From contig OY754471.1 of assembly GCA_963575645.1 (NCBI GenBank), positions 30,140,401 to 30,204,400 of the forward strand: a stretch of DNA of 64,000 nt, written 5' to 3'. The translations under genes and the position numbers were made by a program. Positions 1 through 64,000 of this stretch are shown here, in pieces. The DNA comes from Xanthostigma xanthostigma (Eukaryota; Arthropoda; Insecta; Raphidioptera; Raphidiidae). Under the pieces are notes generated by a model. The model ran no database searches. It was not told the DNA's origin and worked only from the letters and a program-made list of their open reading frames with translations. Position 1 is the first letter of the stretch; each line of letters starts with the position of its first letter.

Positions 1-1
1 C

Positions 2-166
2 AATTGTCGTGAAGCATGTAAAAACTGCTTGTTTGTGTTAAAATAATGGTTAATATGCAGTTTGCAATTTCTTATGAGAGAATGATCCAAACCTGAATTG
101 TATAGTGTAAATAGACTGACCTTCATGAAATAAAGCAATTTTTCCTATAAAGACTCATTTGCACCT
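2..166 (+). repeat. Example 165-bp monomer defining the phase
   Basis: This is the first complete monomer, running from aattgtc to the base before the next aattgtc at 167. Monomers differ mainly at four places. The left edge reads acgcaattgtcgtgaag, acctaattgtcataaag, acctaattgtcgtaaag or cccctaattgtcataaag. The 31-58 block reads ttaaaataatggttaat or tgaaaatgatagtaaat. The 101-130 block contains taccctcatgaaat, tacctttgtaaaat or gaaagtagacttaccttt. The 141-150 block reads tgcctataag, tgcttataag, tgccgataag, tggctattaag or tgcctttaag. These recur in fixed neighbour combinations, which is what reveals the higher-order structure. Confidence 0.95.
65..84. other. 20-bp imperfect palindrome present in nearly every monomer (first instance)
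   Basis: The consensus cattttcttatgagagaatg (monomer 64-83) has the reverse complement cattctctcataagaaaatg and agrees at 16 of 20 positions, that is 8 of 10 symmetric pairs. It recurs in almost all ~388 monomers; exceptions include ttttcaatgagag and ttttctaatgagag forms. This first instance reads caatttcttatgagagaatg, one base off consensus. Short dyads are known in several centromeric satellites and may form hairpins or bind dimeric proteins. Either role here is inference. Confidence 0.7.
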
Positions 167-1089
167 AATTGTCGTAAAGCATGAAAAAAATGCTTGTCTG
201 CGTTTAAATAATGGTTAATATGCTGTTTGCATTTTCTTATGAGAGAATGATCCAAACCTGAATGTTATAGTGTAAATTGACTAACCCTCATGAAATAAAG
301 CAATTTTGCCTATAAAGACTCATTTGCACCTAATTGTCATAAAGCATGTAAAAACTGCTTGTATGCGTTAAAATAATGGTTAATATGCAGTTTGCATTTT
401 CTTATGAGAGAATGATCCAAACCTGAATGTTATAATGTAAATAGACCTACCTTTGTAAAATAAAGCAATTTTGCCTATAAGGACTCATTTGCACGCAATT
501 GTCGTGAAGCATGTAAAAACTGCTTGTCTGCGTGAAAATGATAGTAAATATGCAGTTTGCATTTTCTTATGAGAGAATGATCCAAACCTGAATGTTATAG
601 TTTTAATAGACTTACCCTCATGAAATAAAGCAATTTTGGCTATAAAGACTCATTTGCACCTAATTGTCGTAAAGCATGTAAAAACTGCTTGTCTTTGTGA
701 AAATGATAGTCAATATTCAGTTTGCATTTTCAATGAGAGAATATGCCAAACCTGAATGTTATAGTGTAAATAGACTAACCTGCATGAAATAAAGCATTTT
801 TGCCTATAAGGACCCATTTGCCCCTAATTGTCATAAAGCATGTAAAAACTGCTTGTATGCGTTAAAATAATGGTTAATATGCAGTTTGCATTTTCTTATG
901 AGAGAATGATCCAAACCTGAATGTTATAGTGTAAAAAGACTTACCCTCATGAAATAAAGCAATTTTGCCTATAAGGACTCATTTGCACCTAATTGTCATA
1001 AAGCATGTAAAAACTGCTTGTCTGCGTTAAAATAAAAGTTAATATGCAGTTTGCATTTTCTTATGAGAGAATGATACAAACCTGAATGT

Positions 1090-1260
1090 TTTAGTGAAAG
1101 TAGACTTACCTTTGTGAAATAAAACAATTTTGCCTTTAAGGACTTATTTCCACCTAATTGTCGTAAAACATGTGAAAACTGCTTGTCTGCGTGAAAATGA
1201 TAGTAAATATGCAGTTTGCATTTTCTTATAAGAGAATGATCCAAACCTGAATGTTATAGT
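1090..1260 (+). repeat. Divergent monomer class with gaaagtagac and gcctttaagg
   Basis: This class reads gaaagtagacttaccttt, gtgaaataaaacaatttt and tgcctttaaggactta, usually with tttccacc and gtaaaacatgtg to its right. It recurs roughly 38 times by eye, for example near 1096, 6541, 7370, 8521, 12650, 14957, 20070, 24851, 28480, 32768, 35078, 44650, 46625, 52400, 54375 and 63118. It is the most distinct subfamily. On the minus strand the change from ctataag to ctttaag removes an in-frame stop, which is why most of the longer open frames begin or run through it. Confidence 0.85.
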
Positions 1261-1320
1261 GTAAATAGACTTACCTTTGCAAAATAAAGCAATTTTGCTT
1301 ATAAGGACTCATTTGCACGC

Positions 1321-4300
1321 AATTGTCGTGAAGCATGTAAAAACTGCTTGTCTGCGTTTAAATAATGGTTAATATGCAGTTTGCATTTTCTTATGAGAGA
1401 ATGATCCAAACCTGAATGTTATAGTGTAAATAGACTTACCTTCATAAAATAAAGCAATTTTGACGATAAGGACTCATTTGCCCCTAATTGTCATAAAGCA
1501 TGTAAAAACTGCTTGTCTGCGTTAATATAATGGTTAATATGCAGTTTACATTTTCTTATGAGAGAATGATCCAAACCTGAATGTTATAGTGTAAATAGAC
1601 TTACCTTTGTAAAATGAAGCAATTTTGCCTATAAGGACTCATTTGCACCTAATTGTCATAAAACATGTAAAAACTGCTTGTATGCGTTAAAATAATGGTT
1701 AATATGCAGTTTGCATTTTCTTATGAGAGAATGATCCAAACCTGAATGTTATAGTGAAAGTAGACTTACCTTTGTAAAATAAAGCAATTTTGCCTATAAG
1801 GACTCATTTGCACGCAATTGTCGTGAAGCATGTAAAAACTGCTTGTCTGCGTGAAAATGATAGTTAATATGCAGTTTGCATTTTCTTATGAGAGAATGAT
1901 CCAAACCTGAATGTTATAGTTTAAATAGACTTACCCTCATGAAATAAAGCAATTTTGGCTATTAAGACTCATTTGCACCTAATTGTCGTAAAGCATGTAA
2001 AAACTGCTTTCCTGCGTTTAAATAATGGTTAATATGCAGTTTGCATTTTCATATGAGAGAATGATCCAAACCTGAATGTTATAGTGTAAATAGACTTACC
2101 TTCATAAAATAAAGCAATTTTGACGATAAGGACTCATTTGCCCCTAATTGTCATAAAGCATGTAAAAACTGCTTGTCTGCGTTAATATAATGGTTAATAT
2201 GCAGTTTACATTTTCTTATGAGAGAATGATCCAAACCTGAATGTTATAGTGTAAATAGACTTACCTTTGTAAAATGAAGCAATTTTGCCTATAAGGACTC
2301 ATTTGCACCTAATTGTCATAAAACATGTAAAAACTGCTTGTATGCGTTAAAATAATGGTTAATATGCAGTTTGCATTTTCTTATGAGAGAATGATCCAAA
2401 CCTGAATGTTATAGTGAAAGTAGACTTACCTTTGTAAAATAAAGCAATTTTGCCTATAAGGACTCATTTGCACGCAATTGTCGTGAAGCATGTAAAAACT
2501 GCTTGTCTGCGTGAAAATGATAGTTAATATGCAGTTTGCATTTTCTTATGAGAGAATGATCCAAACCTGAATGTTATAGTTTAAATAGACTTACCCTCAT
2601 GAAATAAAGCAATTTTGGCTATTAAGACTCATTTGCACGCAATTGTCGTGAAGCATGTAAAAACTGCTTGTCTGCGTTTAAATAATGGTTAATATGCAGT
2701 TTGCATTTTCTTATGAGAGAATGATCCAAACCTGAATGTTATAGTGTAAATAGACTTACCTTCATAAAATAAAGCAATTTTGACGATAAGGACTCATTTG
2801 CCCCTAATTGTCATAAAGCATGTAAAAACTGCTTGTCTGCGTTAATATAATGGTTAATATGCAGTTTACATTTTCTTATGAGAGAATGATCCAAACCTGA
2901 ATGTTATAGTGTAAATAGACTTACCTTTGTAAAATGAAGCAATTTTGCCTATAAGGACTCATTTGCACCTAATTGTCATAAAACATGTAAAAACTGCTTG
3001 TATGCGTTAAAATAATGGCTAATATGCAGTTTGCATTTTCTTATGAGAGAATGATCCAAACCTGAATGTTATAGTGAAAGTAGACTTACCTTTGTAAAAT
3101 AAAGCAATTTTGCCTATAAGGACTCATTTGCACGCAATTGTCGTGAAGCATGTAAAAACTGCTTGTCTGCGTGAAAATGATAGTTAATATGCAGTTTGCA
3201 TTTTCTTATGAGAGAATGATCCAAACCTGAATGTTATAGTTTAAATAGACTTACCCTCATGAAATAAAGCAATTTTGGCTATTAAGACTCATTTGCACCT
3301 AATTGTCGTAAAGCATGTAAAAACTGCTTTCCTGCGTTTAAATAATGGTTAATATGCAGTTTGCATTTTCTTATGAGAGAATGATCCAAACCTGAATGTT
3401 ATAGTGTAAATAGACTTACCTTCATAAAATAAAGCAATTTTGACGATAAGGACTCATTTGCCCCTAATTGTCATAAAGCATGTAAAAACTGCTTGTCTGC
3501 GTTAATATAATGGTTAATATGCAGTTTACATTTTCTTATGAGAGAATGATCCAAACCTGAATGTTATAGTGTAAATAGACTTACCCTCATGAAATAAAGC
3601 AATTTTGCCTATAAGGACTCATTTGCACCTAATTGTCATAAAACATGTAAAAACTGCTTGTATGCGTTTAAATAATGGTTAATATGCAGTTTGCATTTTC
3701 TTATGAGAGAATGATCCAAACCTGAATGTTATAGTGAAAGTAGACTTACCTTTGTAAAATAAAGCAATTTTGCCTATAAGGACTCATTTGCACGCAATTG
3801 TCGTAAAGCATGTAAAAACTGCTTGTCTGCGTGAAAATGATAGTTAATATGCAGTTTGCATTTTCTTATGAGAGAATGATCCAAACCTGAATGTTATAGT
3901 TTAAATAGACTTACCCTCATGAAATAAAGCAATTTTGGCTATTAAGACTCATTTGCACCTAATTGTCGTAAAGCATGTAAAAACTGCTTTCCTGCGTTTA
4001 AATAATGGTTAATATGCAGTTTGCATTTTCTTATGAGAGAATGATCCAAACCTGAATGTTATAGTGTAAATAGACTTACCTTCATAAAATAAAGCAATTT
4101 TGACGATAAGGACTCATTTGCCCCTAATTGTCATAAAGCATGTAAAAACTGCTTGTCTGCGTTAATATAATGGTTAATATGCAGTTTACATTTTCTTATG
4201 AGAGAATGATCCAAACCTGAATGTTATAGTGTAAATAGACTTACCTTTGTAAAATGAAGCAATTTTGCCTATAAGGACTCATTTGCACCTAATTGTCATA

Positions 4301-4740
4301 AAACATGTAAAAACTGCTTGTATGCGTTAAAATAATGGTTAATATGCAGTTTGCATTTTCTTATGAGAGAATGATCCAAACCTGAATGTTATAGTGAAAG
4401 TAGACTTACCTTTGTAAAATAAAGCAATTTTGCCTATAAGGACTCATTTGCACGCAATTGTCGTGAAGCATGTAAAAACTGCTTGTCTGCGTGAAAATGA
4501 TAGTAAATATGTAGTTTGCATTTTCTTATGAGAGAATGATCCAAACCTGAATGTTATAGTTTAAATAGACTTACCCTCATGAAATAAAGCAATTTTGGCT
4601 ATTAAGACTCATTTGCACCTAATTGTCGTAAAGCATGTAAAAACTGCTTTCCTGCGTTTAAATAATGGTTAATATGCAGTTTGCATTTTCTTATAAGAGA
4701 ATGATCCAAACCTGAATGTTATAGTGTAAATAGACTTACC
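1321..4740 (+). repeat. 660-bp higher-order repeat (4 monomers), ~5.2 tandem units
   Basis: The diagnostic tgacgataag variant recurs at 1461, 2121, 2781, 3441 and 4101, exactly 660 bp apart, and the surrounding hundreds of bases are almost identical. Units run 1321-1980, 1981-2640, 2641-3300, 3301-3960 and 3961-4620, then a partial unit to 4740, where the variant changes to tgccgataag. Units starting at 1321 and 2641 open with gtcgtgaag and cttgtctg. Those at 1981, 3301, 3961 and 4621 open with gtcgtaaag and ctttcctg. Single differences mark units, for example ggctaat near 3018, ccctcatgaaat near 3585 and tatgtagtttg near 4508. The same four-monomer set occurs only once or twice per copy elsewhere (near 13.9-14.6, 34.0-34.7, 35.4-36.0 and 57.0-57.6 kb), so the expansion is local. 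Confidence 0.93.
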
Positions 4741-7600
4741 TTCATGAAATAAAGCAATTTTGCCGATAAGGACTCATTTGCCCCTAATTGTCATAAAGCA
4801 TGTAAAAACTGCTTGTATGCGTTAAAATAATGGTTAATATGCAGTTTGCATTTTCTTATGAGAGAATGATCCAAACCTGAATGTTATAGTGAAAATAGAC
4901 TTACCTTTGTAAAATAACGCAATTTTGCCTATAAGGACTTATTTGCACGCAATTGTCGTAAAGCATGTAAAAACTGCTTGTCTGCGTGAAAATGATAGTA
5001 AATATGCAGTTTGCATTTTCTTATGAGAGAATGATCCAAACCTGAATGTTATAGTGTAAATAGACTCACCTTTGTAAAATAAAGCAATTTTGCTTATAAG
5101 GACTCATTTGCACGCAATTGTCGTGAAGCATGTAAAAACTGCTTGTCTGCGTTAAAATAATGGTTAATATCCAGTTTGCATATTCTTATGAGAGAAAGAT
5201 CCAAACCTGAATGTTATAGTGTAAATAGACTTACCTTTGTAAAATAAAGCAATTTTGCTTATAAGGACTCTTTTGCACGCAATTGTCGTGAAGCATGTAA
5301 AAACTGCTTGTCTGCGTTAAAATAATGGTTAATATCCAGTTTGCATATTCTTATGAGAGAAAGATCCAAACCTGAATGTTATAGTGTAAATAGACTTACC
5401 CTCATGAAATAAAGCAATTTTGCCTATAAGGACTCATTTGCACCTAATTGTCATAAAGCATGTAAAAACTGCTTGTATGCGTTAAAATAATGGTTAATAT
5501 GCAGTTTGCATTTTCTTATGAGAGAATGATCCAAACCTGAATGTTATAGTGTAAATAGACTTACCTTTGTAAAATAAAGCAATTTTGCTTATAAGGAGTC
5601 ATTTGCACGCAATTGTCGTGAAGCATGTAAAAACTGCTTGTCTGCGTTAAAATAATGGTTAATATCCAGTTTGCATATTCTTATGAGAGAAAGATCCAAA
5701 CCTGAATGTTATAGTGTAAATAGACTTACCCTCATGAAATAAAGCAATTTTGCCTATAAGGACTCATTTGCACCTAATTGTCATAAAGCATGTAAAAACT
5801 GCTTGTATGCGTTAAAATAATGGTTAATATGCAGTTTGCATTTTCTTATGAGAGAATGATCCAAACCTGAATGTTATAGTGTAAATAGACTTATCTATGT
5901 AAAATAAAGCAATTTTGCCTATAAGGACTCATTTGCACGCAATTGTCGTGAAGCATGTAAGAACTGCTTGTCTGCGTGAAAATGATAGTAAATATGCAGT
6001 TTGCATTTTCTTATGAGAGAATGATCCAAACCTGAATGTTATAGTGTAAATAGACTTACCCTCATGAAATAAAGCAATTTTGCCTATAAACTCTCATTTG
6101 CCCCTAATTGTCGTAAAGCATGTAAAAACTGCTTGTCTGCGTTTAAATAATGGTTAATATGCAGTTTGCATTTTTTTATGAGAGAAAGATCCAAACCTGA
6201 ATGTTATAGTGTAAATAGACTTACCTTCATGAAATAAAGCAATTTTGCCTATAAGGACTCATTTGCCCCTAATTGTCATAAAGCATGTAAAAACTGCTTG
6301 TACGCGTTAAAATAATGGTTAATATGCAGATTGCATTTTCTTATGAGAGAATGACCCAAACCTGAATGTTATAGTGTAAATAGACTAACCTATGTAAAAT
6401 AAAGCAATTTTGCCTATAAGGACTCATTTGCACGCAATTGTCGTGAAGCATGTAAAAACTGCTTGTCTGCGTTAAAATAATGGTTAATATGCAGATTGCA
6501 TTTTCTTATGAGAGAATGATCCAAACCTGAATGTTATAGTGAAAGTAGACTTACCTTTGTGAAATAAAACAATTTTGCCTTTAAGGACTTATTTGCACCT
6601 AATTGTCGTAAAACATGTGAAAACTGCTTGTCTGCGTGAAAATGATAGTAAATATGCAATTTGCATTTTCTTATGAGAGAATGATCCAAACTTGAATGTT
6701 ATAGTGTAAATAGACTTACCTTTGTAAAATAAAGCAATTTTGCTTATAAGGACTCATTTGCACGCAATTGTCGTGAAGCATGTAAAAACTGCTTGTCTGT
6801 GTTAAAATAATGGTTAATATGCAGTTTGCATTTTCTTATGAGTGAATGATCCAAACCTGAATTGTATAGTGTAAATAGACTGACCCTCATGAAATAAAGC
6901 AATTTTGCCTATAAAGACTCATTTGCACCTAATTGTCGTAAAGCATGAAAAAAATGCTTGTCTGCGTTTAAATAATGGTAATATGCAGTTTGCATTTTCT
7001 TATGAGAGAATGATCCAAACCTGAATGTTATAGTGTAAATAGACTTAGCTTTGTAAAATAAAGCAATTTTGCCTATAAGGACTCATTTGCCCCTAATTGT
7101 CATAAAGCATGTAAAAACTGCTTGTATGCGTTAAAATAATGGTTAATATGCAGTTTGCATTTTCTTATGAGAGAATGATCCAAACCTGAATGTTATAGTG
7201 AAAATAGACTTACCTTTGTAAAATAACGCAATTTTGCCTATAAGGACTTATTTGCACGCAATTGTCGTAAAGCATGTAAAAACTGCTTGTCTGCGTTAAA
7301 ATAATGGTTAATATGCAGTTTGCATTTTTTTATGAGAGAATGATCCAAACCTGAATGTTATAGTGAAAGTAGACTTACCTTTGTGAAATAAAACAGTTTT
7401 GCCTTTAAGGACTTATTTCCACCTAATTGTCGTAAAACATGTGAAAACTGCTTGTCTGCGTGAAAATGATAGTAAATATGCAGTTTGCATTTTCTTATGA
7501 GAGAATGATCCAAACCTGAATGTTTTAGTGTAAATAGACTTACCCTCATGAAATAAAGCAATTTTGCCTATAAAGACTCATTTGCACCTAATTGTCATAA
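4741..7600 (+). repeat. Mixed satellite monomers right of the 660-bp array
   Basis: Ordinary 165-bp monomers without a long regular higher-order period. The stretch includes the tccagtttgcatattc variant cluster at 5.1-5.7 kb, a tgcagattgca variant near 6.3-6.5 kb, and gaaagtagac/aaacaatttt monomers near 6541 and 7370. Parts match 14.7-17 kb of copy B. No gene, RNA or non-satellite element is visible. Confidence 0.85.
5101..5890 (+). repeat. Local 165- and 330-bp duplication with tccagtttgcatattc variant
   Basis: Three nearly identical monomers begin (aattgtcgtg) at 5116, 5281 and 5611, each carrying ccagtttgcatattc and agagaaagatcc. The first two are adjacent (165 bp). The third is 330 bp on, and about 5218-5560 matches about 5548-5890. 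The catattc form is rare elsewhere in the window, so this looks like a private local amplification in copy A. Confidence 0.85.
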
Positions 7601-8894
7601 AGCATGTAAAAACTGCTTGTATGCGTTAAAATGATAGTAAATATGCAGTTTGCATTTTCTTATGAGAAAATGATCCAAACCTGAATGTTATAGTGTAAAT
7701 AGACTTACCCTCATGAAATAAAGCAATTTTGCCTATAAGGACTCATTTGCACGCAATTGTCGTAAAGCAGGTAAAAACTGCTTGTCTGCGTTAAAATAAT
7801 GGTTAATATGCAGTTTGCATTTTCTTATGAGAGAATGATCCAAACCTGAATGTTTTAGTGTAAATAGACTTACCCTCATGAAATAAAGCAATTTTGCCTA
7901 TAAAGACTCATTTGCCCCTAATTGTCGTAAAGCATGTAAAAAACTGCTTGTCTGCGTTTAAATAATGGTTAATATGCAGTATACATTTTCTAATGAGAGA
8001 AAGATCCAAACCTGAATGTTATAGTGTAAATAGACTTACCCTCATGAAATAAAGCAATTTTGCCTATAAAGACTCATTTGCACCTAATTGTCGTAAAGCA
8101 TAAAAAAACTGCTTGTCTGCGTTTAAATAATGGTTAATATGCAGTTTGCATTTTCTTATGAGAGAATGATCCAAACCTGAATGTTATAGTGTAAATAGAC
8201 TTACCTTTGTAAAATAAAGCAATTTTGCCTATAAGGACTCATTTGCACGCAATTGTCGTGAAGCATGTAAAAACTGCTTGTCTGCGTGAAAATGATAGTA
8301 AATATGCAGTTTGCATTTTCTTATGAGAGAATGATCCAAACCTGAATGTTATAGTGTAAATAGACTAAACCTCATAAAATAAAGCAATTTTGCCTATAAG
8401 GACTCATTTGCACGCAATTGTCGTAAAGCATGTAAAAACTGCTTGTATGCGTTAAAATAATGGTTAATATGCAGTTTGCATTTTCTTATGAGAGAAAGAT
8501 CCAAACCTGAATGTTATAGTGAAAGTAGACTTACCTTTGTGAAATAAAACAATTTTGCCTTTAAGGACTTATTTCCACCTAATTGTCGTAAAACATGTAA
8601 AAACTGCTTGTCTGCGTTAAAATAATGGTTAATATGCCGTTTGCATTTTCTTATGAGAGAATGATCCAAACCTGAATTGTATAGTGTAAATAGACTGACC
8701 CTCATGAAATAAAGCAATTTTGCCTATAAGGACTCATTTGCACCTAATTGTCATAAAGCATGTAAAAACTGCTTGTATGCGTTAAAATAATGGTTAATAT
8801 GCAGTTTGCATTTTCTTATGTGAGAATGATCCAAACCTGAATGTTATAGTGTAAATAGACTAACCCTCATGAAATAAAGCAATTTTGCCGATAA

Positions 8895-9050
8895 GGACTC
8901 ATTTTCCCCTAATTGTCATAAAGCATGTAAAAACTGCTTGTATGCTTTAAAATAATGGTTAATATGCAGTTTGCTTTTTCTTATGAGAGAATGATCCAAA
9001 CCTGAATGTATAGTGTAAATAGACTTACCTTTGTAAAATGAAGCAATTTT
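8895..9050 (+). repeat. Landmark monomer pair: cattttcccctaattg + gctttttc + gaatgtatagtg
   Basis: A linked set of rare variants (cattttcccc, tatgctttaaaat, gctttttcttatg, and gaatgtatagtg with one base missing) marks one monomer and its right neighbour. It recurs about 12 times, near 8.9, 18.3, 20.6, 25.2, 28.9, 40.2, 42.2, 45.2, 47.2, 52.9, 61.4 and 63.7 kb. In nearly every case it is followed by gaagcaattttg and ataagcactc. It is a convenient anchor for aligning higher-order units. No function is implied. Confidence 0.85.
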
Positions 9051-9370
9051 GCCTATAAGCACTCATTTGCACGCAATTGTCGTGAAGCATGTAAAAACTG
9101 CTTGTCTGCGTTAAAATAATGGTTAATATGCAGTTTGCATTTTCTTATGAGAGAATGATCCAAACCTGAATGTTATAGTGTAAATAGACTTACCCTCATG
9201 AAATAAAGCAATTTTGCCTATAAGGACTCATTTGCACCTAATTGTCATAAAGCATGTAAAAACTGCTTGTATGCGTTAAAATAATGGTTAATATGCAGTA
9301 TGCATTTTCTTATGAGAGAATGATCCAAACCTGAATGTTATAGTGTAAATAGACTTATCTATGTAAAATA

Positions 9371-10200
9371 AAACAATTTTGCCTATAAGGACTCATTTGC
9401 ACGCAATTGTCGTGAAGCATGTAAGAACTGCTTGTCTGCGTGAAAATGATAGTAAATATGCAGTTTGCATTTTCTTATGAGAGAATGATCCAAACCTGAA
9501 TGTTTTAGTGTTAATAGGCTTACCCTCATGAAATAAAGCAATTTTGCCTATAAGGACACATTTGCACGCAATTGTCGTAAAGCATGTAAAAACTGCTTGT
9601 CTGCGTTAAAATAATGGTTAATATGCAGTATGCATTTTCTTATGAGAGAAAAATCCAAACCTGAATGTTATAGTGTAAATAGACTTACCCTCATGAAATA
9701 AAGCAATTTTGCCTATAAAGACTCATTTGCACCTAATTGTCGTAAAGCATGAAAAAACTGCTTGTCTGCGTTTAAATAATAGTTAATTGCAGTTTGCATT
9801 TTCTTATGAGAGAATGATCCAAACCTGAATGTTATAATGTAAATAGACTTAACTTTGTAAAATAAAGCAATTTTGCCTATAAGGACTCATTTGCACGCAA
9901 TTGTCGTGAAGCATGTAAAAACTGCTTGTCTGCGTGAAAATGATAGTAAATATGCAGTTTGCATTTTCTTTTGAGAGAATGATCCAAACCTGAATGTTTT
10001 AGTGTTAATAGGCTTACCCTCATGAAATAAAGCAATTTTGCCTATAAGGACACATTTGCACGCAATTGTCGTAAAGCATGTAAAAACTGCTTGTCTGCGT
10101 TAAAATAATGGTTAATATGCAGTATGCATTTTCTTATGAGAGAAAAATCCAAACCTGAATGTTATAGTGTAAATAGACTTACCCTCATGAAATAAAGCAA
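9371..10200 (+). repeat. Local ~494-bp (3-monomer) tandem duplication
   Basis: The rare block tgttttagtgttaatagg at 9501 recurs at 9995, and each is followed by ggacacatttgcacgc, a cagtatgcatt monomer and agagaaaaatcc. About 9371-9706 matches about 9865-10200. The spacing is one base short of three monomers because the intervening monomer reads gttaattgcag instead of gttaatatgcag. The corresponding part of the next super-repeat (29.3-30.3 kb) has a different arrangement. Confidence 0.85.
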
Positions 10201-50575: not shown

Positions 50576-51049
50576 TATAGTGTAAATAGACTTACCCTCA
50601 TGAAATAAAGCAATTTTGCCTATTAGGACTCATTTGCACCTAATTGTCATAAAACTTGTAAAAACTGCTTGTATGCGTTAAAATAATAGTTAATATGCAG
50701 TTTGCATTTTCTTATGAGAGAATGATCTAAATCTGAATGTTATAGTGTAAATAGACTTACCTTCATGAAATAAAGCAATTTTGCATATAAGGACTCATTT
50801 GCCCTAATTGTCATAAAGCTTGTAAAAACTGCTTGTATGCGTTAAAATGATAGTAAATATGCAGGTTGCATTTTCTTACGAGAGAATGATCCAAACCTGA
50901 ATGTTATAGTGTAAATAGACTTACCTATGTAAAATAAAGCAATTTTGCCTATAAGGACTCATTTGCACGCAATTGTCGTGAAGCATGTAAAAACTGCTTG
51001 TCTGCGTGAAAATGATAGTAAATATGCAGTTTGCATTTTCTTATGAGAG

Positions 51050-51635: not shown

Positions 51636-52149
51636 TCATAAAGCATGTAAAAACTGCTTGTATGCGTTAAAATAATGGTTAATATGCAGTTTGCATTTTC
51701 TTATGAGAGAATGATCCAAACCTGAATGTTATAGTGTAAATAGACTTACCTTTGTAAAATAAAGCAATTTTGCTTATAAGGACTCATTTGCACGCATTTG
51801 TCGTGAAGCATGTAAAAACTGCTTGTCTGCGTTAAAATAATGGTTAATATGCAGTTTGCAATTTCTTATGAGAGAATGATCCAAACCTGAATGTTAGAGT
51901 CAAAGTAGACTTACCTTTGTAAAATAAAGCAATTTTGCCTATAAGGACTCATTTGCCCCTAATTGTCATAAAGCATGTAAAAACTGCTTGTCTGCGTTAA
52001 AATAATGGTTAATATGCAGTTTGCATTTTCATATGAGAGAATGATCCAAACCTGAATGTTATAGTGTAAATAGACTTACCTTTGTAAAATAAAGCAATTT
52101 TGCCTATAAGGACTCATTTGCACGCAATTGTCGTGAAGCATGTAAAAAC

Positions 52150-53250
52150 TGCTTGTCTGCGTTAAAATAATGGTTAATATGCAGTTTGCATTTTCTTATG
52201 AGAGAATGATCCAAACCTGAATGTTATAGTGAAAATAGACTTACCTTTGTAAATTAACGCAATTTTGCCTATAAGGACTCATTTGCACGCAATAGTCGTA
52301 AAGCATGTAAAAACTGATTGTCTGCGTTAAAATAATGGTTAATATGCAGTTTGCATTTTCTTATGAGAGAAAGATCCAAACCTGAATGTTATAGTGAAAG
52401 TAGACTTACCTTTGTGAAATAAAACAATTTTGCCTTTAAGGACTTATTTCCACCTAATTGTCGTAAAACATGTAAAAACTGCTTGTCTGCGTTAAAATAA
52501 TGGTTAATATGCCGTTTGCATTTTCTTATGAGAGAATGATCCAAACCTGAATTGTATAGTGTAAATAGACTGACCCTTATGAAATAAAGCAATTTTGCCT
52601 ATAAAGACTCATTTGCACCTAATTGTCGTAAAGCATGAAAAAACTGCTTGTCTGCGTTTAAATAATGGTTAATATGCAGTTTGCATTTTCTTATGAGAGA
52701 ATGATCCAAACCTGAATGTTATAGTGTAAATAGACTAACCCTCATGAAATAAAGCATTTTTGCTTATAAGGACTCATTTGCACCTAATTGTCATAAAGCA
52801 TGTAAAAACTGCTTGTATGCGTTAAAATAATGGTTAATATGCAGTTTGCATTTTCTTATGAGAGAATGATCCAAACTCGAATGTTATAGTGTAAATAGAC
52901 TAACCCTCATGAAATAAAGCAATTTTGCCGATAAGGACTCATTTTCCCCTAATTGTCATAAAGCATGTAAAAACAGCTTGTATGCTTTAAAATAATGGTT
53001 AATATGCAGTTTGCTTTTTCTTATGAGAGAATGATCCAAACCTGAATGTATAGTGTAAATAGACTTACCTTTGTAAAATGAAGCAATTTTGCCTATAAGC
53101 ACTCATTTGCACGCAATTGTCGTGAAGCATGTAAAAACTGCTTGTCTGCGTTAAAATAATGGTTAATATGCAGTTTGCATTTTCTTATGAGAGAATGATC
53201 CAAACCTGAATGTTATAGTGTAAATAGACTTACCCTCATGAAATAAAGCA
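52150..53250 (+). repeat. ~1.1-kb segment, second copy (7752 bp from first)
   Basis: This is the second copy of 44400-45500. It carries actgattgtctgcg near 52313 and aaactcgaatg at 52873. Small differences include caatagtcgtaaag near 52292 and aaaaacagcttg near 52973, where the first copy reads caattgtcg and aaaaactgcttg. Confidence 0.83.
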
Positions 53251-53278
53251 ATTTTGCCCATAAGGACTCATTTGCACC

Positions 53279-56200
53279 TAATTGTCATAAAGCATGTAAA
53301 AACTGCTTGTATGCGTTAAAATAATGGTTAATATGCAGTTTGCATTTTCTTATGAGAGAATGATCCAAACCTGAATGTTATAGTGTAAATAGACTTATCT
53401 ATGTAAAATAAAACAATTTTGCCTATAAGGACTCATTTGCACGCAATTGTCGTGAAGCATGTAAAAACTGCTTGTCTGCGTGAAAATGATAGTAAATATG
53501 CAGTTTGCATTTTCTTATGAGAGAATGATCCAAACCTGAATGTTATAGTGTTAATAGACTTACCCTCATGAAATAAAGCAATTTTGCCCATAAGGACTCA
53601 TTTGCACCTAATTGTCATAAAGCATGTAAAAACTGCTTGTATGCGTTAAAATAATGGTTAATATGCAGTTTGCATTTTCTTATGAGAGAATGATCCAAAT
53701 CTGAATGTTATAGTGTAAATAGACTTACCTTTGTAAAATAAAGCAATTTTGCCTATAAGGACTCATTTGCACGCAATTGTCGTGAAGCATGTAAAAACTG
53801 CTTGTCTGCGTGAAAATGATAGTAATTATGCAGTTTGCATTTTCTTATGAGAGAATGATCCAAACCTGAATGTTATAGTTTAAATAGACTTACCCTCATG
53901 AAATAAAGCAATTTTGGCTATAATGACTCATTTGCACCTAATTGTCGTAAAGCATGTAAAAACTGCTTGTCTTCGTGAAAATGATAGTCAATATTCTGTT
54001 TGCATTTTCAATGAGAGAATAATCCAAACCTGAATGTTATAGTGTAAATAGACTAACCTGCATGAAATAAAGCAATTTTGCCTATAAGGACCCATTTGCC
54101 CCTAATTGTCATAAAGCATGTAAAAACTGCTTGTATGCGTTAAAATAATGGTTAATATGCAGTTTGCATTTTCTTATGAGAGAATGATCCAAACCTGAAT
54201 GTTATAGTGTAAATAGACTTACCCTCATGAAATAAAGCAATTTTGCCTATAAGGACTCATTTGCACCTAATTGTCATAAAGCATGTAAAAACTGCTTGTC
54301 TGCGTTAAAATAAAGGTTAATATGCAGTTTGCATTTTCTTATGAGAGAATGATACAAACCTGAATGTTTTAGTGAAAGTAGACTTACCTTTGTGAAATAA
54401 AACAATTTTGCCTTTAAGGACTTATTTCCACCTAATTGTCGTAAAACATGTGAAAACTGCTTGTCTGCGTGAAAATGATAGTAAATATGCAGTTTGCATT
54501 TTCTTATGAGAGAATGATCCAAACCTGAATGTTATAGTGTAAATAGACTTACCTTTGCAAAATAAAGCAATTTTGCTTATAAGGACTCATTTGCACGCAA
54601 TTGTTGTGAAGCCTGTAAAAACTGCTTGTCTGCGTTAAAATAATGGTTAATATCCAGTTTGCATTTTCTTATGAGAGAAAGATCCAAACCTAAATGTTAT
54701 AGTGTAAATAGACTTACCTTTGTAAAATAAAGCTATTTTGCTTATAAGGATTCATTTGCACGCAGTTGTCGTGAAGCATGTAAAAACTGCTTGTCTGCGT
54801 TAAAATAATGGTTAATATGCAGTTTGCATTTTCTTATGAGAGAATGATCCAAACCTGAATGTTATAGTGAATGTAGACTTACCTTTGTGAAATAAAACAA
54901 TTTTGCCTTTAAGGACTTATTTCCACCTAATTGTCGTAAAACATGTAAAAACTGCTTGTCTGCGTTAAAATAATGGTTAATATGCAGTTTACATTTTCTT
55001 ATGAGAGAATGATCCAAACCTGAATGTTATTGTGTAAATAGACTTACCTTTGTAAAATAAAGCAATTTTGCTTATAAGGACTCATTTGCACGCAGTTGTC
55101 GTGAAGCATGTAAAAACTGCTTATCTGCGTTAAAATAATGGTTAATATGCAGTTTGCATTTTCTTATGAGAGAAAGATCCAAACCTGAATGTTATAGTGT
55201 AAATAGACTTACCTTTGTAAAATAAAGCTATTTTGCTTATAAGGATTCATTTGCACGCAGTTGTCGTGAAGCATGTAAAAACTGCTTATCTGCGTTAAAA
55301 TAATGGTTAATATGCAGTTTGCATTTTCTTATGAAAGAATGATCCAAACCTGAATGTTATAGTGAAAGTAGACTTACCTTTGTAAAATAAAGCAATTTTG
55401 CCTATAAGGACTCATTTGCACGCAATTGTCGTGAAGCATGTAAAAACTGCTTGTCTGCGTGAAAACGATAGTAAATATGCAGTTTGCATTTTCTTATGAG
55501 AGAATGATCCAAACCTGAATGTTATAGTTTAAATAGACTTACCCTCATGAAATAAAGCAATTTTGGCTATTAAGACTCATTTGCACCTAATTGTCATAAA
55601 GCATGTAAAAACTGCTTGTCTGCGTTAATATAATGGTTAATATGCAGTTTACATTTTCTTATGAGAGAATGATCCAAACCTGAATGTTATAGTGTAAATA
55701 GACTTACCTTTGTAAAATGAAGCAATTTTGCCTATAAGGACTCATTTGCACCTAATTGTCATAAAACATGTAAAAACTGCTTGTATGCGTTAAAATAATG
55801 GTTAATATGCAGTTTGCATTTTCTTATGAGAGAATGATCCAAACCTGAATGTTATAGTGAAAGTAGACTTACCTTTGTAAAATAAAGCAATTTTGCCTAT
55901 AAGGACTCATTTGCACGCAATTGTCGTGAAGCATGTAAAAACTGCTTGTCTGCGTGAAAATGATAGTAAATATGCAGTTTGCATTTTCTTATGAGAGAAT
56001 GATCCAAACCTGAATGTTATAGTTTAAATAGACTTACCCTCATGAAATAAAGCAATTTTGGCTATTAAGACTCATTTGCACCTAATTGTCGTAAAGCATG
56101 TAAAAACTGCTTTCCTGCGTTTAAATAATGGTTAATATGCAGTTTGCATTTTCTTATGAGAGAATGATCCAAACCTGAATGTTATAGTGTAAATAGACTT

Positions 56201-59200
56201 ACCTTCATGAAATAAAGCAATTTTGCCGATAAGGACTCATTTGCCCCTAATTGTCATAAAGCATGTAAAAACTGCTTGTATGCGTTAAAATAATGGTTAA
56301 TATGCAGTTTGCATTTTCTTATGAGAGAATGATCCAAACCTGAATGTTATAGTGAAAATAGACTTACCTTTGTAAAATAACGCAATTTTGCCTATAAGGA
56401 CTTATTTGCACGCAATTGTCGTAAAGCATGTAAAAACTGCTTGTCTGCGTTAAAATAAAGGTTAATATGCAGTTTGCATTTTCTTATGAGAGAATGATAC
56501 AAACCTGAATGTTTTAGTGAAAGTAGACTTACCTTTGTGAAATAAAACAATTTTGCCTTTAAGGACTTATTTCCACCTAATTGTCGTAAAACATGTGAAA
56601 ACTGCTTGTCTGCGTGAAAATGATAGTAAATATGCAGTTTGCTTTTTCTTATGAGAGAATGATCCAAACCTGAATGTTATAGTGTAAATAGACTTACCTT
56701 TGTAAAATAAAGCAATTTTGCATATAAGGACTCATTTGCACGCAATTGTCGTGAAGCATGTAAAAACTGCTTGTCTGCGTTAAAATAATGGTTAATATCC
56801 AGTTTGCATTTTCTTATGAGAGAATGATCCAAACCTGAATGTTATAGTGAAAGTAGACTTACCTTTGTAAAATAAAGCAATTTTGCCTATAAGGACTCAT
56901 TTGCACGCAATTGTCGTGAAGCATGTAAAAACTGCTTGTCTGCGTGAAAATGATAGTAAATATGCAGTTTGCATTTTCTTATGAGAGAATGATCCAAACC
57001 TGAATGTTATAGTTTAAATAGACTTACCCTCATGAAATAAAGCAATTTTGGCTATTAAGACTCATTTGCACCTAATTGTCGTAAAGCATGTAAAAACTGC
57101 TTTCCTGCGTTTAAATAATGGTTAATATGCAGTTTGCATTTTCTTATGAGAGAATGATCCAAACCTGAATGTTATAGTGTAAATAGACTTACCTTCATAA
57201 AATAAAGCAATTTTGACGATAAGGACTCATTTGCCCCTAATTGTCATAAAGCATGTAAAAACTGCTTGTCTGCGTTAATATAATGGTTAATATGCAGTTT
57301 ACATTTTCTTATGAGAGAATGATCCAAACCTGAATGTTATAGTGTAAATAGACTTACCTTTGTAAAATGAAGCAATTTTGCCTATAAGGACTCATTTGCA
57401 CCTAATTGTCATAAAACATGTAAAAACTGCTTGTATGCGTTAAAATAATGGTTAATATGCAGTTTGCATTTTCTTATGAGAGAATGATCCAAACCTGAAT
57501 GTTATAGTGAAAGTAGACTTACCTTTGTAAAATAAAGCAATTTTGCCTATAAGGACTCATTTGCACGCAATTGTCGTGAAGCATGTAAAAACTGCTTGTC
57601 TGCGTGAAAATGATAGTAAATATGCAGTTTGCATTTTCTTATGAGAGAATGATCCAAACCTGAATGTTATAGTGAAAATAGACTTACCTTTGTAAAATAA
57701 CGCAATTTTGCCTAAAAGGACTTATTTGCACGCAATTGTCGTAAAGCATGTAAAAACTGCTTGTCTGCGTTAAAATAAAGGTTAATATGCAGTTTGCATT
57801 TTCTTATGAGAGAATGATACAAACCTGAATGTTTTAGTGAAAGTAGACTTACCTTTGTGAAATAAAACAATTTTGCCTTTAAGGACTTATTTCCACCTAA
57901 TTGTCGTAAAACATGTGAAAACTGCTTGTCTGCGTGAAAATGATAGTAAATATGCAGTTTGCTTTTTCTTATGAGAGAATGATCCAAACCTGAATGTTAT
58001 AGTGTAAATAGACTTACCTTTGTAAAATAAAGCAATTTTGCTTATAAGGACTCATTTGCACGCAATTGTCGTGAAGCATGTAAAAACTGCTTGTCTGCGT
58101 TAAAATAATGGTTAATATCCAGTTTGCATTTTCTTATGAGAGAATGATCCAAACCTGAATGTTATAGTGAAAGTAGACTTACCTTTGTGAAATAAAACAA
58201 TTTTGCCTTTAAGGACATTTTTGCACCTAATTGTCGTAAAACATGTGAAAACTGCTTGTCTGCGTGAAAATGATAGTAAATATGCAATTTGCATTTTCTT
58301 ATGAGAGAATGATCCAAACTTGAATGTTATAGTGTAAATAGACCTACCTTTGTAAAATAAAGCAATTTTGCTTATAAGGACTCATTTGCACGCAATTGTC
58401 GTGAAGCATGTAAAAACTGCTTGTCTGTGTTAAAATAATGGTTAATATGCAGTTTGCATTTTCTTATGAGAGAATGATCCAAACCTGAATTGTATAGTGT
58501 AAATAGACTGACCCTCATGAAATAAAGCAATTTTGCCTATAAAGACTCATTTGCACCTAATTGTCGTAAAGCATGAAAAAAATGCTTGTCTGCGTTTAAA
58601 TAATGGTTAATATGCAGTTTGCATTTTCTTATGAGAGAATGATCCAAACCTGAATGTTATAGTGTAAATAGACTTAGCTTTGTAAAATAAAGCAATTTTG
58701 CCTATAAGGACTCATTTGCACCTAATTGTCATAAAACATGTAAAAACTGCTTGTATGCGTTAAAATAATGGTTAATATGCAGTTTGCATTTTCTTATGAG
58801 AGAATGATCCAAACCTGAATGTTATAGTGAAAGTAGACTTACCTTTGTAAAATAAAGCAATTTTGCCTATAAGGACTCATTTGCACGCAATTGTCGTGAA
58901 GCATGTAAAAACTGCTTGTCTGGGTGAAAATGATAGTAAATATGCAGTTTGCATTTTCTTATGAGAGAATGATCCAAACCTTAATGTTATAGTTTAAATA
59001 GACTTACCCTCATGAAATAAAGCAATTATGGCTATTAAGACTCATTTGCACCTAATTGTCGTAAAGCATGTAAAAACTGCTTTCCTGCGTTTAAATAATG
59101 GTTAATATGCAGTTTGCATTTTCTTATGAGAGAATGATCCAAACCTGAATGTTGTAGTGTAAATAGACTTACCTTCATGAAATAAAGCAATTTTGCCGAT

Positions 59201-62200
59201 AAGGACTCATTTGCCCCTAATTGTCATAAAGCATGTAAAAACTGCTTGTATGCGTTAAAATAATGGTTAATATGCAGTTTGCATTTTCTTATGAGAGAAT
59301 GATCCAAACCTGAATGTTATAGTGAAAATAGACTTACCTTTGTAAAATAACGCAATTTTGCCTATAAGGACTTATTTGCACGCAATTGTCGTAAAGCATG
59401 TAAAAACTGCTTGTCTGCGTTAAAATAATGGTTAATATGCAGTTTGCATTTTCTTATGAGAGAAAGATCCAAACCTGAATGTTATAGTGTAAATAGACTT
59501 ACCCTCATGAAATAAAGCAATTTTGCCTATAAGGACTCATTTGCACCTAATTGTCATAAAGCATGTAAAAACTGCTTGTATGCGTTAAAATAATGGTTAA
59601 TATGCAGTTTGCATTTTCTTATGAGAGAATGACCCAAACCTGAATGTTATAGTGTAAATAGACTAACCTATGTAAAATAAAGCAATTTTGCCTATAAGGA
59701 CTCATTTGCACGCAATTGTCGTGAAGCATGTAAAAACTGCTTGTCTGCGTTAAAATAATGGTTAATATGCAGTTTGCATTTTCTTATGAGAGAATGATCC
59801 AAACCTGAATGTTATAGTGAAAGTAGACTTACCTTTGTGAAATAAAACAATTTTGCCTTTAAGGACTTATTTGCACCTAATTGTCGTAAAACATGTGAAA
59901 ACTGCTTGTCTGCGTGAAAATGATAGTAAATATGCAATTTGCATTTTCTTATGAGAGAATGATCCAAACTTGAATGTTATAGTGTAAATAGACTTACCTT
60001 TGTAAAATAAAGCAATTTTGCTTATAAGGACTCATTTGCACGCAATTGTCGTGAAGCATGTAAAAACTGCTTGTCTGTGTTAAAATAATGGTTAATATGC
60101 AGTTTGCATTTTCTTATGAGAGAATGATCCAAACCTGAATTGTATAGTGTAAATAGACTGACCCTCATGAAATAAAGCAATTTTGCCTATAAAGACTCAT
60201 TTGCACCTAATTGTCGTAAAGCATGAAAAAAATGCTTGTCTGCGTTTAAAATATGGTTAATATGCAGTTTGCATTTTCTTATGAGAGAATGATCCAAACC
60301 TGAATGTTATAGGGAAAGTAGACTTACCTTTGTAAAATAAAGCAATTTTGCCTATAAGGACTCATTTGCACGCAATTGTCGTGAAGCATGTAAAAACTGC
60401 TTTCCTGCGTTTAAATAATGGTTAATATGCAGTTTGCATTTTCTTATGAGAGAATGATCCAAACCTGAATGTTATAGTGTAAATAGACTTACCTTCATGA
60501 AATAAAGCAATTTTGCCGATAAGGACTCATTTGCCCCTAATTGTCATAAAGCATGTAAAAACTGCTTGTATGCTTTAAAATAATGGTTAATATGCAGTTT
60601 GCATTTTCTTATGAGAGAATGATCCAAACCTGAATGTTATAGTGAAAATAGACTTACCTTTGTAAAATAACGCAATTTTGCCTATAAGGACTTATTTGCA
60701 CGCAATTGTCGTAAAGCATGTAAAAACTGCTTGTCTGCGTTAAAAAAATGGTTTATATGCAGTTTGCATTTTCTTATGAGAGAATGATTCAAACCTGAAT
60801 GTTATAGTGAAAGTAGACTTACCTTTGTGAAATAAAACAATTTTGCCTTTAAGGACTTATTTCCACCTAATTGTCGTAAAACATGTGAAAACTGCTTGTC
60901 TGCGTGAAAATGATAGTAAATATGCAGTTTGCATTTTCTTATGAGAGAATGATCCAAACCTGAATGTTATAGTGTAAATAGACTAACCTTTGTAAAATAA
61001 AGCAATTTTGCTTATAAGGACTCATTTGCACGCAATTGTCGTGAAGCATGTAAAAACTGCTTGTCTGCGTTAAAATAATGGTTAATATCCAGTTTGCATT
61101 TTCTTATGAGAGAAAGATCCAAACCTGAATGTTATAGTGTAAATAGACTTACCTTTGTAAAATAAAGCTATTTTGCTTATAAGGACTCATTTGCAGGCAA
61201 TTGTCGTGAAGCATGTAAAAACTGCTTGCCTGCGTTAAAATAATGGTTAATATCCAGTTTGCATTTTCTTATGAGAGAAAGATCCAAACCTGAATGTTAT
61301 AGTGTAAATAGAATTACCTTCATGAAATAAAGCAATTTTGCCGATAAGGACTCATTTTCCCCTAATTGTCATAAAGCATGTAAAAACTGCTTGTATGCTT
61401 TAAAATAATAATTAATATGCAGTTTGCTTTTTCTTATGAGAGAATGATCCAAACCTGAATGTATAGTGTAAATAGACTTACCTTTGTAAAATGAAGCAAT
61501 TTTGCCTATAGCACTCATTTGCACGCAATTGTCGTGAAGCATGTAAAAACTGCTTGTCTGCGTTAAAATAATGGTTAATATGCAGTTTGCATTTTCTTAT
61601 GAGAGAATGATCCAAACCTTAATGTTATAGTGTAAATAGACTTACCTTTGTAATATAAAGCAATTTTGCCTATAAGGACTCATTTGCACGCAATTGTCGT
61701 GAAGCATGTAAGAACTGCTTGTCTGCGTGAAAATGATAGTAAATATGCAGTTTGCATTTTCTTATGAGAGAATGATCCAAACCTGAATGTTTTAGTGTAA
61801 ATAGACTTACCCTCATGAAATAAAGCAATTTTGCCTATAAAGACTCATTTGCACCTAATTGTCATAAAGCATGTAAAAACTGCTTGTATGCGTTAAAATA
61901 ATGGTTAATATGCAGTTTGCATTTTCTTATGAGAGAATGATCCAAACCTGAATGTTATAGTGTAAATAGACTTACCCTCATGAAATAAAGCAATTTTGCC
62001 TATAAGGACTCATTTGCACCTAATTGTCATAAAGCATGTAAAAACTGCTTGTCTGCGTTAAAATAATGGGTAATATGCAGTTTGCATTTTCATATGAGAG
62101 AATGATCCAAACCTGAATGTTATAGTGTAAATAGACTTACCTTTGTAAAACAAAGCAATTTTGCCTATAAGGACTCATTTGCACGCAATTGTCGTAAAGC

Positions 62201-64000
62201 ATGTAAAAACTGCTTGTCTGCGTTAAAATAATGGTTAATATGCAGTTTGCATTTTCTTATGAGAGAATGATCCAAACCTGAATGTTTTAGTGTAAATAGA
62301 CTTACCCTTATGAAATAAAGCAATTTTGCCTATAAAGACTCATTTGCCCCTAATTGTCGTAAAGCATGTAAAAACTGCTTGTCTGCGTTTAAATAATGGT
62401 TAATATGCAGTATACATTTTCTAATGAGAGAAAGATCCAAACCTGAATGTTATAGTGTAAATAGACTTACCCTCATGAAATAAAGCAATTTTGCCTATAA
62501 AGACTCATTTGCACCTAATTGTCGTAAAGCATAAAAAAACTGCTTGTCTGCGTTTAAATAATGGTTAATATGCAGTTTGCATTTTCTTATGAGAGAATGA
62601 TCCAAACCTGAATGTTATAGTGTAAATAGACTTACCTTTGTAAAATAAAGCAATTTTGCCTATAAGGACTCATTTGCACGCAATTGTCGTGAAGCATGTA
62701 AAAACTGCTTGTCTGCGTGAAAATGATAGTAAATATGCAGTTTGCATTTTCTTATGAGAGAATGATCCAAACCTGAATGTTATAGTGTAAATAGACTAAA
62801 CCTCATGAAATAAAGCAATTTTGCCTATAAGGACTCATTTGCACCTAATTGTCATAAAGCATGTAAAAACTGCTTGTATGCGTTAAAATAATGGTTAATA
62901 TGCAGTTTGCATTTTCATATGAGAGAATGATCCAAACCTTAATGTTATAGTGTAATTACACTTACCTTTGTAAAACAAAGCAATTTTGCCTATAAGGACT
63001 CATTTGCACGCAATTGTCGTAAAGCATGTAAAAACTGCTTGTATGCGTTAAAATAATGGTTAATATGCAGTTTGCATTTTCTTATGAGAGAAAGATCCAA
63101 ACCTGAATGTTATAGTGAAAGTAGACTTACCTTTGTGAAATAAAACAATTTTGCCTTTAAGGACTTATTTCCACCTAATTGACGTAAAACATGTAAAAAC
63201 TGCTTGTCTGCGTTAAAATAATGGTTAATATGCCGTTTGCATTTTCTTATGAGAGAATGATCCAAACCTGAATTGTATAGTGTAAATAGACTGACCCTCA
63301 TGAAATAAAGCAATTTTGCCTATAAAGACTCATTTGCACCTAATTGTCGTAAAGCATGAAAAAACTGCTTGTCTGCGTTTAAATAATGGTTAATATGCAG
63401 TTTGCATTTTCTTCTGAGAGAATGATCCAAACCTGAATGTTATAGTGTAAATAGACTAACCCTCATGAAATAAAGCAATTTTGCCTATAAGGACTCATTT
63501 GCACCTAATTGTCATAAAGCATGTAAAAACTGCTTGTATGCGTTAAAATAATGGTTAATATGCAGTTTGCATTTTCTTATGAGAGAATGATCCAAACCTG
63601 AATGTTATAGTGTAAATAGACTAACTATCATGAAATAAAGCAATTTTGCCGATAAGGACTCATTTTCCCCTAATTGTCATAAAGCATGTAAAAACTGCTT
63701 GTATGCTTTAAAATAATGGTTAATATGCAGTTTGCTTTTTCTTATGAGAGAATGATCCAAACCTGAATGTATAGTGTAAATAGACTTACCTTTGTAAAAT
63801 GAAGCAATTTTGACTATAAGCACTCATTTGCACGCAATTGTCGTGAAGCATGTAAAAACAGCTTGTCTGCGTTAAAATAATGGTTAATATGCAGTTTGCA
63901 TTTTCTTATGAGAGAATGATCCAAACCTGAATGTTATAGTGTAAATAGACTTACCCTCATGAAATAAAGCAATTTTGCCTATAAGGACTCATTTGCACCT
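53279..64000 (+). repeat. Super-repeat copy D (partial, runs off the right edge)
   Basis: Clear homology to copies B and C begins near 53.7 kb: tgatagtaattatgc near 53817 matches 12087 at an offset of 41730. It continues through gttgtgaagcctg (54604), the taacgcaattttg blocks (56.38 and 57.70 kb), gtctgggtgaaaat (58918), ttgcaggcaattg (61191) and aaaaacagcttg (63854). The 53279 start is projected from the copy C offset. Between 53.28 and 53.7 kb the sequence belongs to other monomers, so the real joint is nearer 53.7 kb. Confidence 0.78.
55550..55640 (+). other. In-register loss of one monomer in copy D
   Basis: In copies A, B and C, a ggctattaagactc monomer is followed by the ctttcctgcg monomer, then by the gttaatataatgg monomer. 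In copy D, the ggctattaag right end (about 55565) leads directly into gtcataaagcatg and gttaatataatgg. The middle monomer is missing and the fusion lies around 55590. The super-repeat offset falls by exactly 165 across this point. It rises by 165 again near 56.8 kb, where copy D has an extra ccagtttgcatt monomer relative to C. Confidence 0.85.

What the first reader, a model, noticed from the sequence alone, without database searches (positions are those of the whole stretch)
1..64000. Three-tier satellite: 165-bp monomer, local multi-monomer units, ~20-22 kb super-repeat
Multi-monomer marker orders recur at offsets of 20122-20123 (B to C) and about 21607 (C to D), over long stretches with few differences. 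A super-repeat of over 120 monomers is much longer than most described satellite higher-order repeats. It suggests that segments of ~20 kb, not only a few monomers, are copied as blocks.
Basis: seen in the sequence. Interest (0 to 1): 0.7.

Follow-up and report, generated by a model that had tools for sequence, protein, structure and literature searches.

The report
Snakefly satellite array with 20-kb duplications

Summary
The window is one uninterrupted 165-bp satellite array (388 monomers) on chromosome 8 of a genome matching the snakefly Xanthostigma xanthostigma. Offsets 20,122/20,123 and 21,607 are genuine: 5.1 kb repeats at 20,123 with 44 substitutions and one 1-bp indel, and 55 of 60 monomers repeat in order from C to D. 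Permuting 10-monomer blocks never reached the observed signal (0 of 200).

Copies A-D have unequal spacing and differ mostly by whole-monomer indels. The B-C offset contains a young 3,630-bp duplication; without it, it would be about 16.5 kb. In the next 50 kb downstream the 18.8-22.3 kb signal is zero, replaced by about 12.5, 16.8 and 24.4 kb. Units range from 3 to over 100 monomers. A similar 18.3-18.8 kb block copy lies on an unplaced scaffold; hit positions suggest a 24.1 kb one on chromosome 7.

Best reading: ordinary satellite evolution by in-register homologous exchange or break-induced replication, with a broad range of block sizes. Large duplications inside satellites are already reported. 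Centromere function is untested.

The parts
2..64000 (+). Uninterrupted 165-bp satellite array, 388 monomers, no insertion
   Evidence: no long open frame: longest 94 codons in six frames
1..6930 (+). Block A: partial copy of the first half of the super-repeat (continues upstream to about -2470); about 31.2-32.8 kb from C, mainly 9.9 and 11.5 kb from B; 97-99% identical
   Evidence: chains at lags 145-200 and 20-60
1321..4785 (+). Local four-monomer (660 bp) repeat, 5.25 units, 98.7% identical
7755..27713 (+). Block B (boundary phase arbitrary); 7755 pairs with 27714, 10064 with 30187, 11880 with 32003 and 53610
21774..29033 (+). Young tandem duplication of 22 monomers (3,630 bp), 99.92%, lying inside the B-C interval
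27714..52785 (+). Block C; 32003-41900 repeats in D at 21,112-21,772 bp, the second half at 74722-80657 outside the window
41901..48990 (+). Older 30-monomer (4,947 bp) duplication inside C; 13 monomers retained as a pair, 98.7%
52786..64000 (+). Block D, first part (5' boundary rests on five or six monomers at 98.4-98.5%); continues past the window to about 79833-80657
56744..64000 (+). First copy of a young 46-monomer (7,587 bp) tandem duplication; the second copy is 64331-71917 in window coordinates; 99.95%

Best explanation
The window is part of a ~2 Mb 165-bp satellite array, probably the centromeric or pericentromeric satellite of snakefly chromosome 8. It has no fixed higher-order unit in the 134 kb read. 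It grows and turns over by tandem block duplication and deletion through homology between monomers in register (unequal sister exchange or break-induced replication re-entering at an out-of-register monomer). Block sizes are broad, from about 3 to more than 100 monomers. The 20-22 kb pattern is what remains of a few large duplications (copies A to D), later edited by whole-monomer indels and by younger nested duplications. Shown: the array, the blocks, their offsets, identities and in-register indels. Inferred: the recombination route, the order of events and the centromere role.
For: Offsets and identities. Signal against permutation. Aligned copies need indels of exactly 165, 330, 495 and 4,947 bp plus a few of 1-2 bp, and in 134 kb no full monomer departs from 165 bp by more than 3 bp, so no breakpoint lost the register. 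The three youngest junctions lie in 21, 58 and 120 bp of near-identity beyond the unit length (my arithmetic on the mismatch positions). Unit sizes are broad. Simulation: with units capped at 34 monomers, 0 of 40 runs under each of two size laws gave a run of >=30 monomers at lag >=100; with units up to 150, 25 of 40 (log-uniform) and 38 of 40 (uniform) did; the value in the 134 kb is 30. Other loci: on scaffold C25, runs of 46 and 52 monomers (overlapping by two) repeat at 18,291 and 18,785 bp, 99.84% and 99.92% identical; on chromosome 7, a 24,082-bp offset is shared by seven of the seven hits in a 5.9-kb stretch (hits of one region, not independent, and not read as sequence).
Against: Unequal exchange and break-induced replication cannot be told apart here, and one paper's passages argue that simple unequal crossover does not explain the spread of new human HORs (PMC11062924). 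Longer forced alignments of B-C and C-D fall to 98.3% and 97.7%, so the copies are not perfectly collinear. The simulation is crude: matching is by label, sizes were chosen by me, and in a first version some arrays died out. The second half of D lies outside the window. Only 134 kb of the ~2 Mb chromosome 8 array was read contiguously. Repeated offsets among sparse hits on other chromosomes mostly did not beat an interval-shuffle null. No read-level check of the assembly was possible.
Confidence: 0.78

Rival explanations
1. A true third tier: a ~20-22 kb higher-order unit amplified as a regular super-repeat along the array.
For: In-window peak at lags of 114-135 monomers with second and third echoes. 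A marker block from the window also sits at 30,091,724 and 30,113,836, 22,112 bp apart, at about 95% identity.
Against: Downstream 50 kb: zero monomers in runs of five or more at 18.8-22.3 kb, against 98, 45 and 61 at 11.6-13.2, 15.2-16.8 and 24.3-25.9 kb. Spacing of copies varies, and the B-C offset includes a young 3,630-bp duplication.
Confidence: 0.1
2. Assembly artefact: false duplication or misjoin of HiFi contigs in a repeat longer than the reads.
For: Mean HiFi read about 11.3 kb (18.51 Gb / 1.64 million reads; PMC11871431, section 5), shorter than 20 kb; some copies are 99.95-100% identical; curation removed 13 haplotypic duplications, places not given.
Against: In cleanly aligned runs B, C and D differ by about 0.2-2% (mostly 0.5-1%) plus whole-monomer indels, that is tens of differences per read, while assembly QV is 66.1. 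A copied contig would be identical.
Confidence: 0.05
3. Re-integration of extrachromosomal circles or replication slippage, rather than exchange between chromatids or break-induced replication, produced the blocks.
For: Satellites are known to give circular DNA (PMC2543021, search listing with title and abstract start only); adjacent head-to-tail copies fit circles too.
Against: No test here separates it. Copies of the 20-kb class lie next to each other in collinear order, which needs no excised intermediate.
Confidence: 0.1
4. The block size is functional or constrained, for example set by chromatin loops or by the tract length of break-induced replication, so that 10-25 kb blocks are preferred genome-wide.
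For: Block copies at 12.5, 16.8 and 20.1-21.6 kb on C8, 18.3-18.8 kb on C25 and, from hit positions, 24.1 kb on C7.
Against: Units of 3-46 monomers also occur in the same 134 kb; long copies are easier to notice; a broad size law gives comparable signals in simulation.
Confidence: 0.1

Closest known systems
Human alpha satellite higher-order repeat arrays (including DYZ3 34/36-mer and DXZ1)
   Same: Monomer of near-nucleosomal length (about 171 bp, PMC11062924, passages), megabase array, multi-monomer blocks copied in register, layers of different age; large internal duplications (hundreds of kb in DXZ1, PMC9859433, passages)
   Different: Human arrays are organised into HOR units, the longest given as 34 monomers (PMC8997354, passages). 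Here no dominant unit was found in 134 kb; blocks of 3 to >100 monomers coexist.
Maize CentC arrays of centromere 10 with adjacent segmental duplications (PMC4806543, passages)
   Same: Higher-order repeats formed as adjacent segmental duplications of satellite; inverted array orientations
   Different: The youngest dated CentC example is a 10-monomer block, and the authors favour alternative end-joining; their 22.7-kb duplication is of retroelements. Here the blocks are pure satellite, larger, and in monomer register throughout the 134 kb.
Unequal exchange and break-induced replication models of satellite evolution (PMC8997354, passages)
   Same: Predict tandem in-register duplications and deletions, nested blocks and turnover
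   Different: The passages seen give no specific 20-kb size; neither model was tested directly here.

Membership tests
Satellite DNA | Head-to-tail tandem monomers in a long array | tested here: met
   388 monomers in 64 kb, 812 full monomers in 134 kb
Satellite DNA | Non-coding | tested here: met
   Six frames of the window: at least 1,014 stops each, longest open run 94 codons
Higher-order repeat (HOR) array in the strict sense | A multi-monomer unit, copies much more alike than adjacent monomers | tested here: met
   Block copies listed are 97-100% identical against 91% for adjacent monomers
Higher-order repeat (HOR) array in the strict sense | One unit repeated regularly over most of the array | tested here: not met
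   No dominant lag over the 134 kb read; the 20-22 kb signal is absent downstream. The rest of the ~2 Mb array was only sampled.
Centromeric satellite | One main array per chromosome at an internal site | tested here: inconclusive
   Clustered hits at internal sites on C1-C10 and C12; none listed on C11 or X (C13); two isolated hits on C1; the lists are capped or incomplete, so absences prove nothing
Centromeric satellite | Bound by centromeric histone or kinetochore proteins | not testable with these tools
   Needs ChIP, CUT&RUN or FISH; some insects lack CenH3 (recalled). A related order, Neuroptera, has a species described as having localized centromeres (PMC12734326, passages)
Alpha satellite | CENP-B box | tested here: not met
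   No match to a CENP-B-box core in the consensus, either strand (motif recalled)
Alpha satellite | Sequence homology to primate alpha satellite | not tested
   No comparison was made; not expected in an insect

The most novel reading that the evidence does not exclude
In this snakefly, centromeric-type arrays are renewed largely by copying blocks of about 10-25 kb (60-150 monomers) on several chromosomes, a copy scale above that of regular human alpha satellite units, perhaps set by the tract length of break-induced replication or by chromatin loops.
Probability: 0.15. Interest if true: 0.6.

Novelty: new member of a known kind. Interest (0 to 1): 0.33.

Why it matters
It gives a well-resolved example, from an insect order for which the one search made found only two papers holding both 'Raphidioptera' and 'satellite DNA', of satellite sequence built without a dominant higher-order unit. 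Young, in-register junctions at known positions make the competing recombination models testable by comparing individuals.

Tried and rejected
Tried: (1) a fixed 20-22 kb period along the array, rejected for the downstream 50 kb. (2) A short dominant HOR in the window: none, since the top 25 monomer lags by mean identity are all 122 monomers or more and adjacent identity (0.909) is below the overall mean (0.914); by share of monomers at >=97%, lags of 22 and 30 also enter the top 25, at 0.063 and 0.061. (3) Repeated offsets in sparse pattern hits on other chromosomes (groups with fewer than five hits left out; the list showed 100 of 122 places): of eight contig/strand groups, C3 minus reached its top count (11,210 bp, three pairs) in 1 of 500 interval shuffles, C6 plus (18,298 bp, three pairs) in 38 of 500, the other six in 80 to 500 of 500; I claim none of these. 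For 98 C1 array hits no offset dominated and no null was run. (4) Hit lists as a census: one search missed a 99.9% copy on C25 that one search had shown, so absences in such lists are not used. (5) Outward polarity of arrays as a rule: weakened by C1 and C3. (6) A first organism guess from memory (chiton) was wrong; mitochondrial genes pointed to an insect and the genome note matched. (7) No CENP-B-box core; one 7-bp inverted repeat in the monomer among those of 7 bp or more with arms within 40 bp.
Full report
What and where. The window is G000:C8:30140401-30204400 of a 623,323,696-base, 28-contig genome. The contig lengths seen (C1 84.21, C2 69.27, C6 50.87, C8 49.42, C12 23.97, C13 18.36 Mb, and a 17,745-base mitochondrial contig) match the tables of the genome note of the snakefly Xanthostigma xanthostigma, assembly irXanXant1.1 (PMC11871431; abstract and sections 5 and 12 read). 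The mitochondrial contig carries insect-type COX1 and, by my reading, COX2 and ND2 frames under code 5. C8 would be OY754471.1 and C13 the X.

The array. The whole window is a 165-bp, 32% GC tandem array without insertion. On C8, 24 of 24 sampled stretches between 29.000 and 30.953 Mb are satellite, one of them (L012) with a 1.6-kb insertion; a stretch at 28.900 Mb is retroelement and one at 31.000 Mb is other sequence. A consensus hit at 28.886 Mb puts some satellite beyond that retroelement. The minus strand carries the repeat left of about 30.02 Mb and the plus strand from 30.05 Mb. A 37-base consensus word occurs 61,891 times in the genome (31,834 forward, 30,057 reverse) and 167 times in the window's 388 monomers. 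If that ratio holds elsewhere, this is about 144,000 monomers or 24 Mb; an estimate.

At each lag from 100 to 59,999 I counted 500-bp windows with >=97% identity: 21,607 ranks first of 271 lags with any such window; 20,122 and 20,123 are fourth and fifth, behind 3,630 and 660. Monomer by monomer, the longest block in the window is 31 monomers at 122 monomers' distance (20,123 bp, 99.14%). A local alignment of monomer order restricted to lags of 95-145 gives eleven ordered runs from B to C (87 of 114 monomers of the B stretch aligned, 83 of them at >=97%) and five from C to D in the first half (55 of 60, all at >=97%). Most of the second half of C (41901-53609) finds its D partner at 74722-80657, outside the window; the young 7,587-bp duplication lies between.

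Is it more than chance? In the window, lags of 116-137 monomers hold 122 monomers in runs of five or more at >=97% identity. Permuting single monomers gives none in 200 trials; permuting 10-monomer blocks gives mean 20.6 and at most 57 in 200. Bands at 40.6-44.1 kb (52 monomers) and, weakly, 51.5-54.9 kb (21 monomers) are also raised, as expected for several successive copies.

Why it is not a fixed tier. (a) Offsets drift in whole monomers, give or take 1-2 bp: B-C main runs 19,959, 20,123, 21,938, 22,104 (chain extremes 19,794 and 23,917); C-D 21,112, 21,442, 21,607, 21,772. (b) The B-C interval contains a 22-monomer duplication, 21774-25403 and 25404-29033, 99.92% identical. The segment 7755-9074 matches its first copy at 16,329 bp (99.55%), so the interval was about 16.5 kb before that event (20,123 minus 3,630; inference). 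(c) Block A is mainly 9.9 and 11.5 kb from B. (d) In the 50 kb downstream the 18.8-22.3 kb bands are empty, while about 12.5, 16.8 and 24.4 kb are strong. (e) Upstream I read only 20 kb beyond the window, too little to test the period there; one marker pair at 30.092 and 30.114 Mb is 22,112 bp apart, which keeps the rival alive.

Anatomy of the duplications. Tandem lags with at least 1.6 units in the 134 kb are 3, 4, 5, 6, 7, 8, 9, 11, 12, 22, 26, 46 and 76 monomers; several share one place (4/8/12 at 1321-4785; 4/6/7/9/11 around -11.7 to -8.1 kb) and are not independent. The youngest are 99.9-100% identical (22, 26 and 46 monomers); runs of the A-D class are mostly 98-99.8%. Alignments of paired blocks need gaps of 165, 330, 495 and 4,947 bp and a few of 1-2 bp. 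Some forced longer alignments (10064-17983 against 30187-37941, 98.3%; 32003-41900 against 53610-63011, 97.7%) score lower because they run through stretches without a good partner; they count against perfect collinearity. Two of 812 full monomers depart from 165 bp by more than 2 bp, both 168 bp.

Mechanism. Constant register, whole-monomer indels and junctions lying in 21-120 bp of near-identity (my arithmetic) fit homologous exchange out of register, or break-induced replication re-entering at another monomer. Alternative end-joining as argued for maize centromere 10 (PMC4806543, passages) would not be expected to keep the register every time; this is inference. A label-based simulation, tuned to the observed number of >=97% partners, gave a run of >=30 monomers at lag >=100 in 0 of 40 replicates under each of two laws capped at 34 monomers, and never the 346 monomers in runs of >=12 seen in the 134 kb (maxima 84 and 27). 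With units up to 150 monomers, 25 of 40 (log-uniform) and 38 of 40 (uniform) reached 30, and 7 and 28 of 40 reached 346. An earlier version pointed the same way for the capped laws, but some of its long-unit arrays died out.

Elsewhere in the genome. On the 83-kb unplaced scaffold C25, 4436-12004 repeats at 18,291 bp (46 monomers, 99.84%) and 11675-20253 at 18,785 (52 monomers, 99.92%), two runs overlapping by two monomers. On chromosome 7, all seven hits between 33,821,654 and 33,827,594 have a partner of similar score 24,082 bp away; the sequence there was not read. Smaller hit groups share offsets on C3, C4, C6, C7, C8 and C15 (three or four hits each); C9 had none. Hit lists are incomplete (one search missed a known copy).

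Relation to known systems. The passages read describe unequal exchange and break-induced replication as models for nested blocks and give 34 monomers as the longest human HOR (PMC8997354); report a 36-mer variant and DXZ1 duplications of hundreds of kb in two genomes (PMC9859433); and argue that new human HORs spread by saltatory amplification rather than simple unequal crossover (PMC11062924). So large block copying inside a satellite is known; sequence without a dominant unit and with blocks from 3 to over 100 monomers is a further example. In the listings of my paper searches (at most 20 titles each) I saw no paper on this satellite; most subscription journals are not held, and the genome note sections I read do not mention it.

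Limits. No reads, alternate haplotype or protein-binding data were available.

Noticed in passing
C8 28.89-30.95 Mb; arrays on C1-C10 and C12: Array orientation: the leftmost listed hits are on the minus strand and the rightmost on the plus strand on 9 of 11 chromosomes (C2, C4 to C10, C12; on C4 a 248-bp inverted piece is leftmost); C1 (plus/plus) and C3 (minus/minus) are exceptions. This order does not depend on how the chromosome is drawn. Sparse, capped and post hoc data.
   Followed up: partly
C8 between 30,021,026 and 30,050,001: The satellite switches strand there, about 90-120 kb left of the window; it may be a real inversion or a scaffolding join (58 gaps in the whole assembly).
   Followed up: no
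L012 1779-3350 (C8:29551779-29553350): A retroelement piece inside the minus-strand array, with a reverse transcriptase domain (PF00078) in a 463-codon open frame.
   Followed up: partly
L035 1-3000 (C8:28900001-28903000): Retroelement with RNase H and integrase zinc-binding domains (PF17917, PF17921) near the left edge of the array.
   Followed up: partly
C25 1-40000 (L046-L048, L059): Unplaced 83-kb satellite scaffold; among the hits listed, the best matches to one 1,650-bp block outside the scaffold are on C8 at 30.26 and 30.295 Mb (97%), so it may belong to the C8 array or its other haplotype. It carries odd 155/157/173-bp monomers in recurring sets.
   Followed up: partly
L041, L044, L045 (starts of C1, C12, C13): Three of five contig starts looked at (C25, all satellite, not counted) begin with short tandem repeats that differ between contigs (for example CCTTTTTTTAGCTCC on C1) rather than the TTAGG expected for many insects (recalled).
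   Followed up: no
C6:1195571-1196020 and C2:16906869-16907126: Nuclear pieces resembling mitochondrial COX1, with stops, probably nuclear mitochondrial insertions.
   Followed up: no
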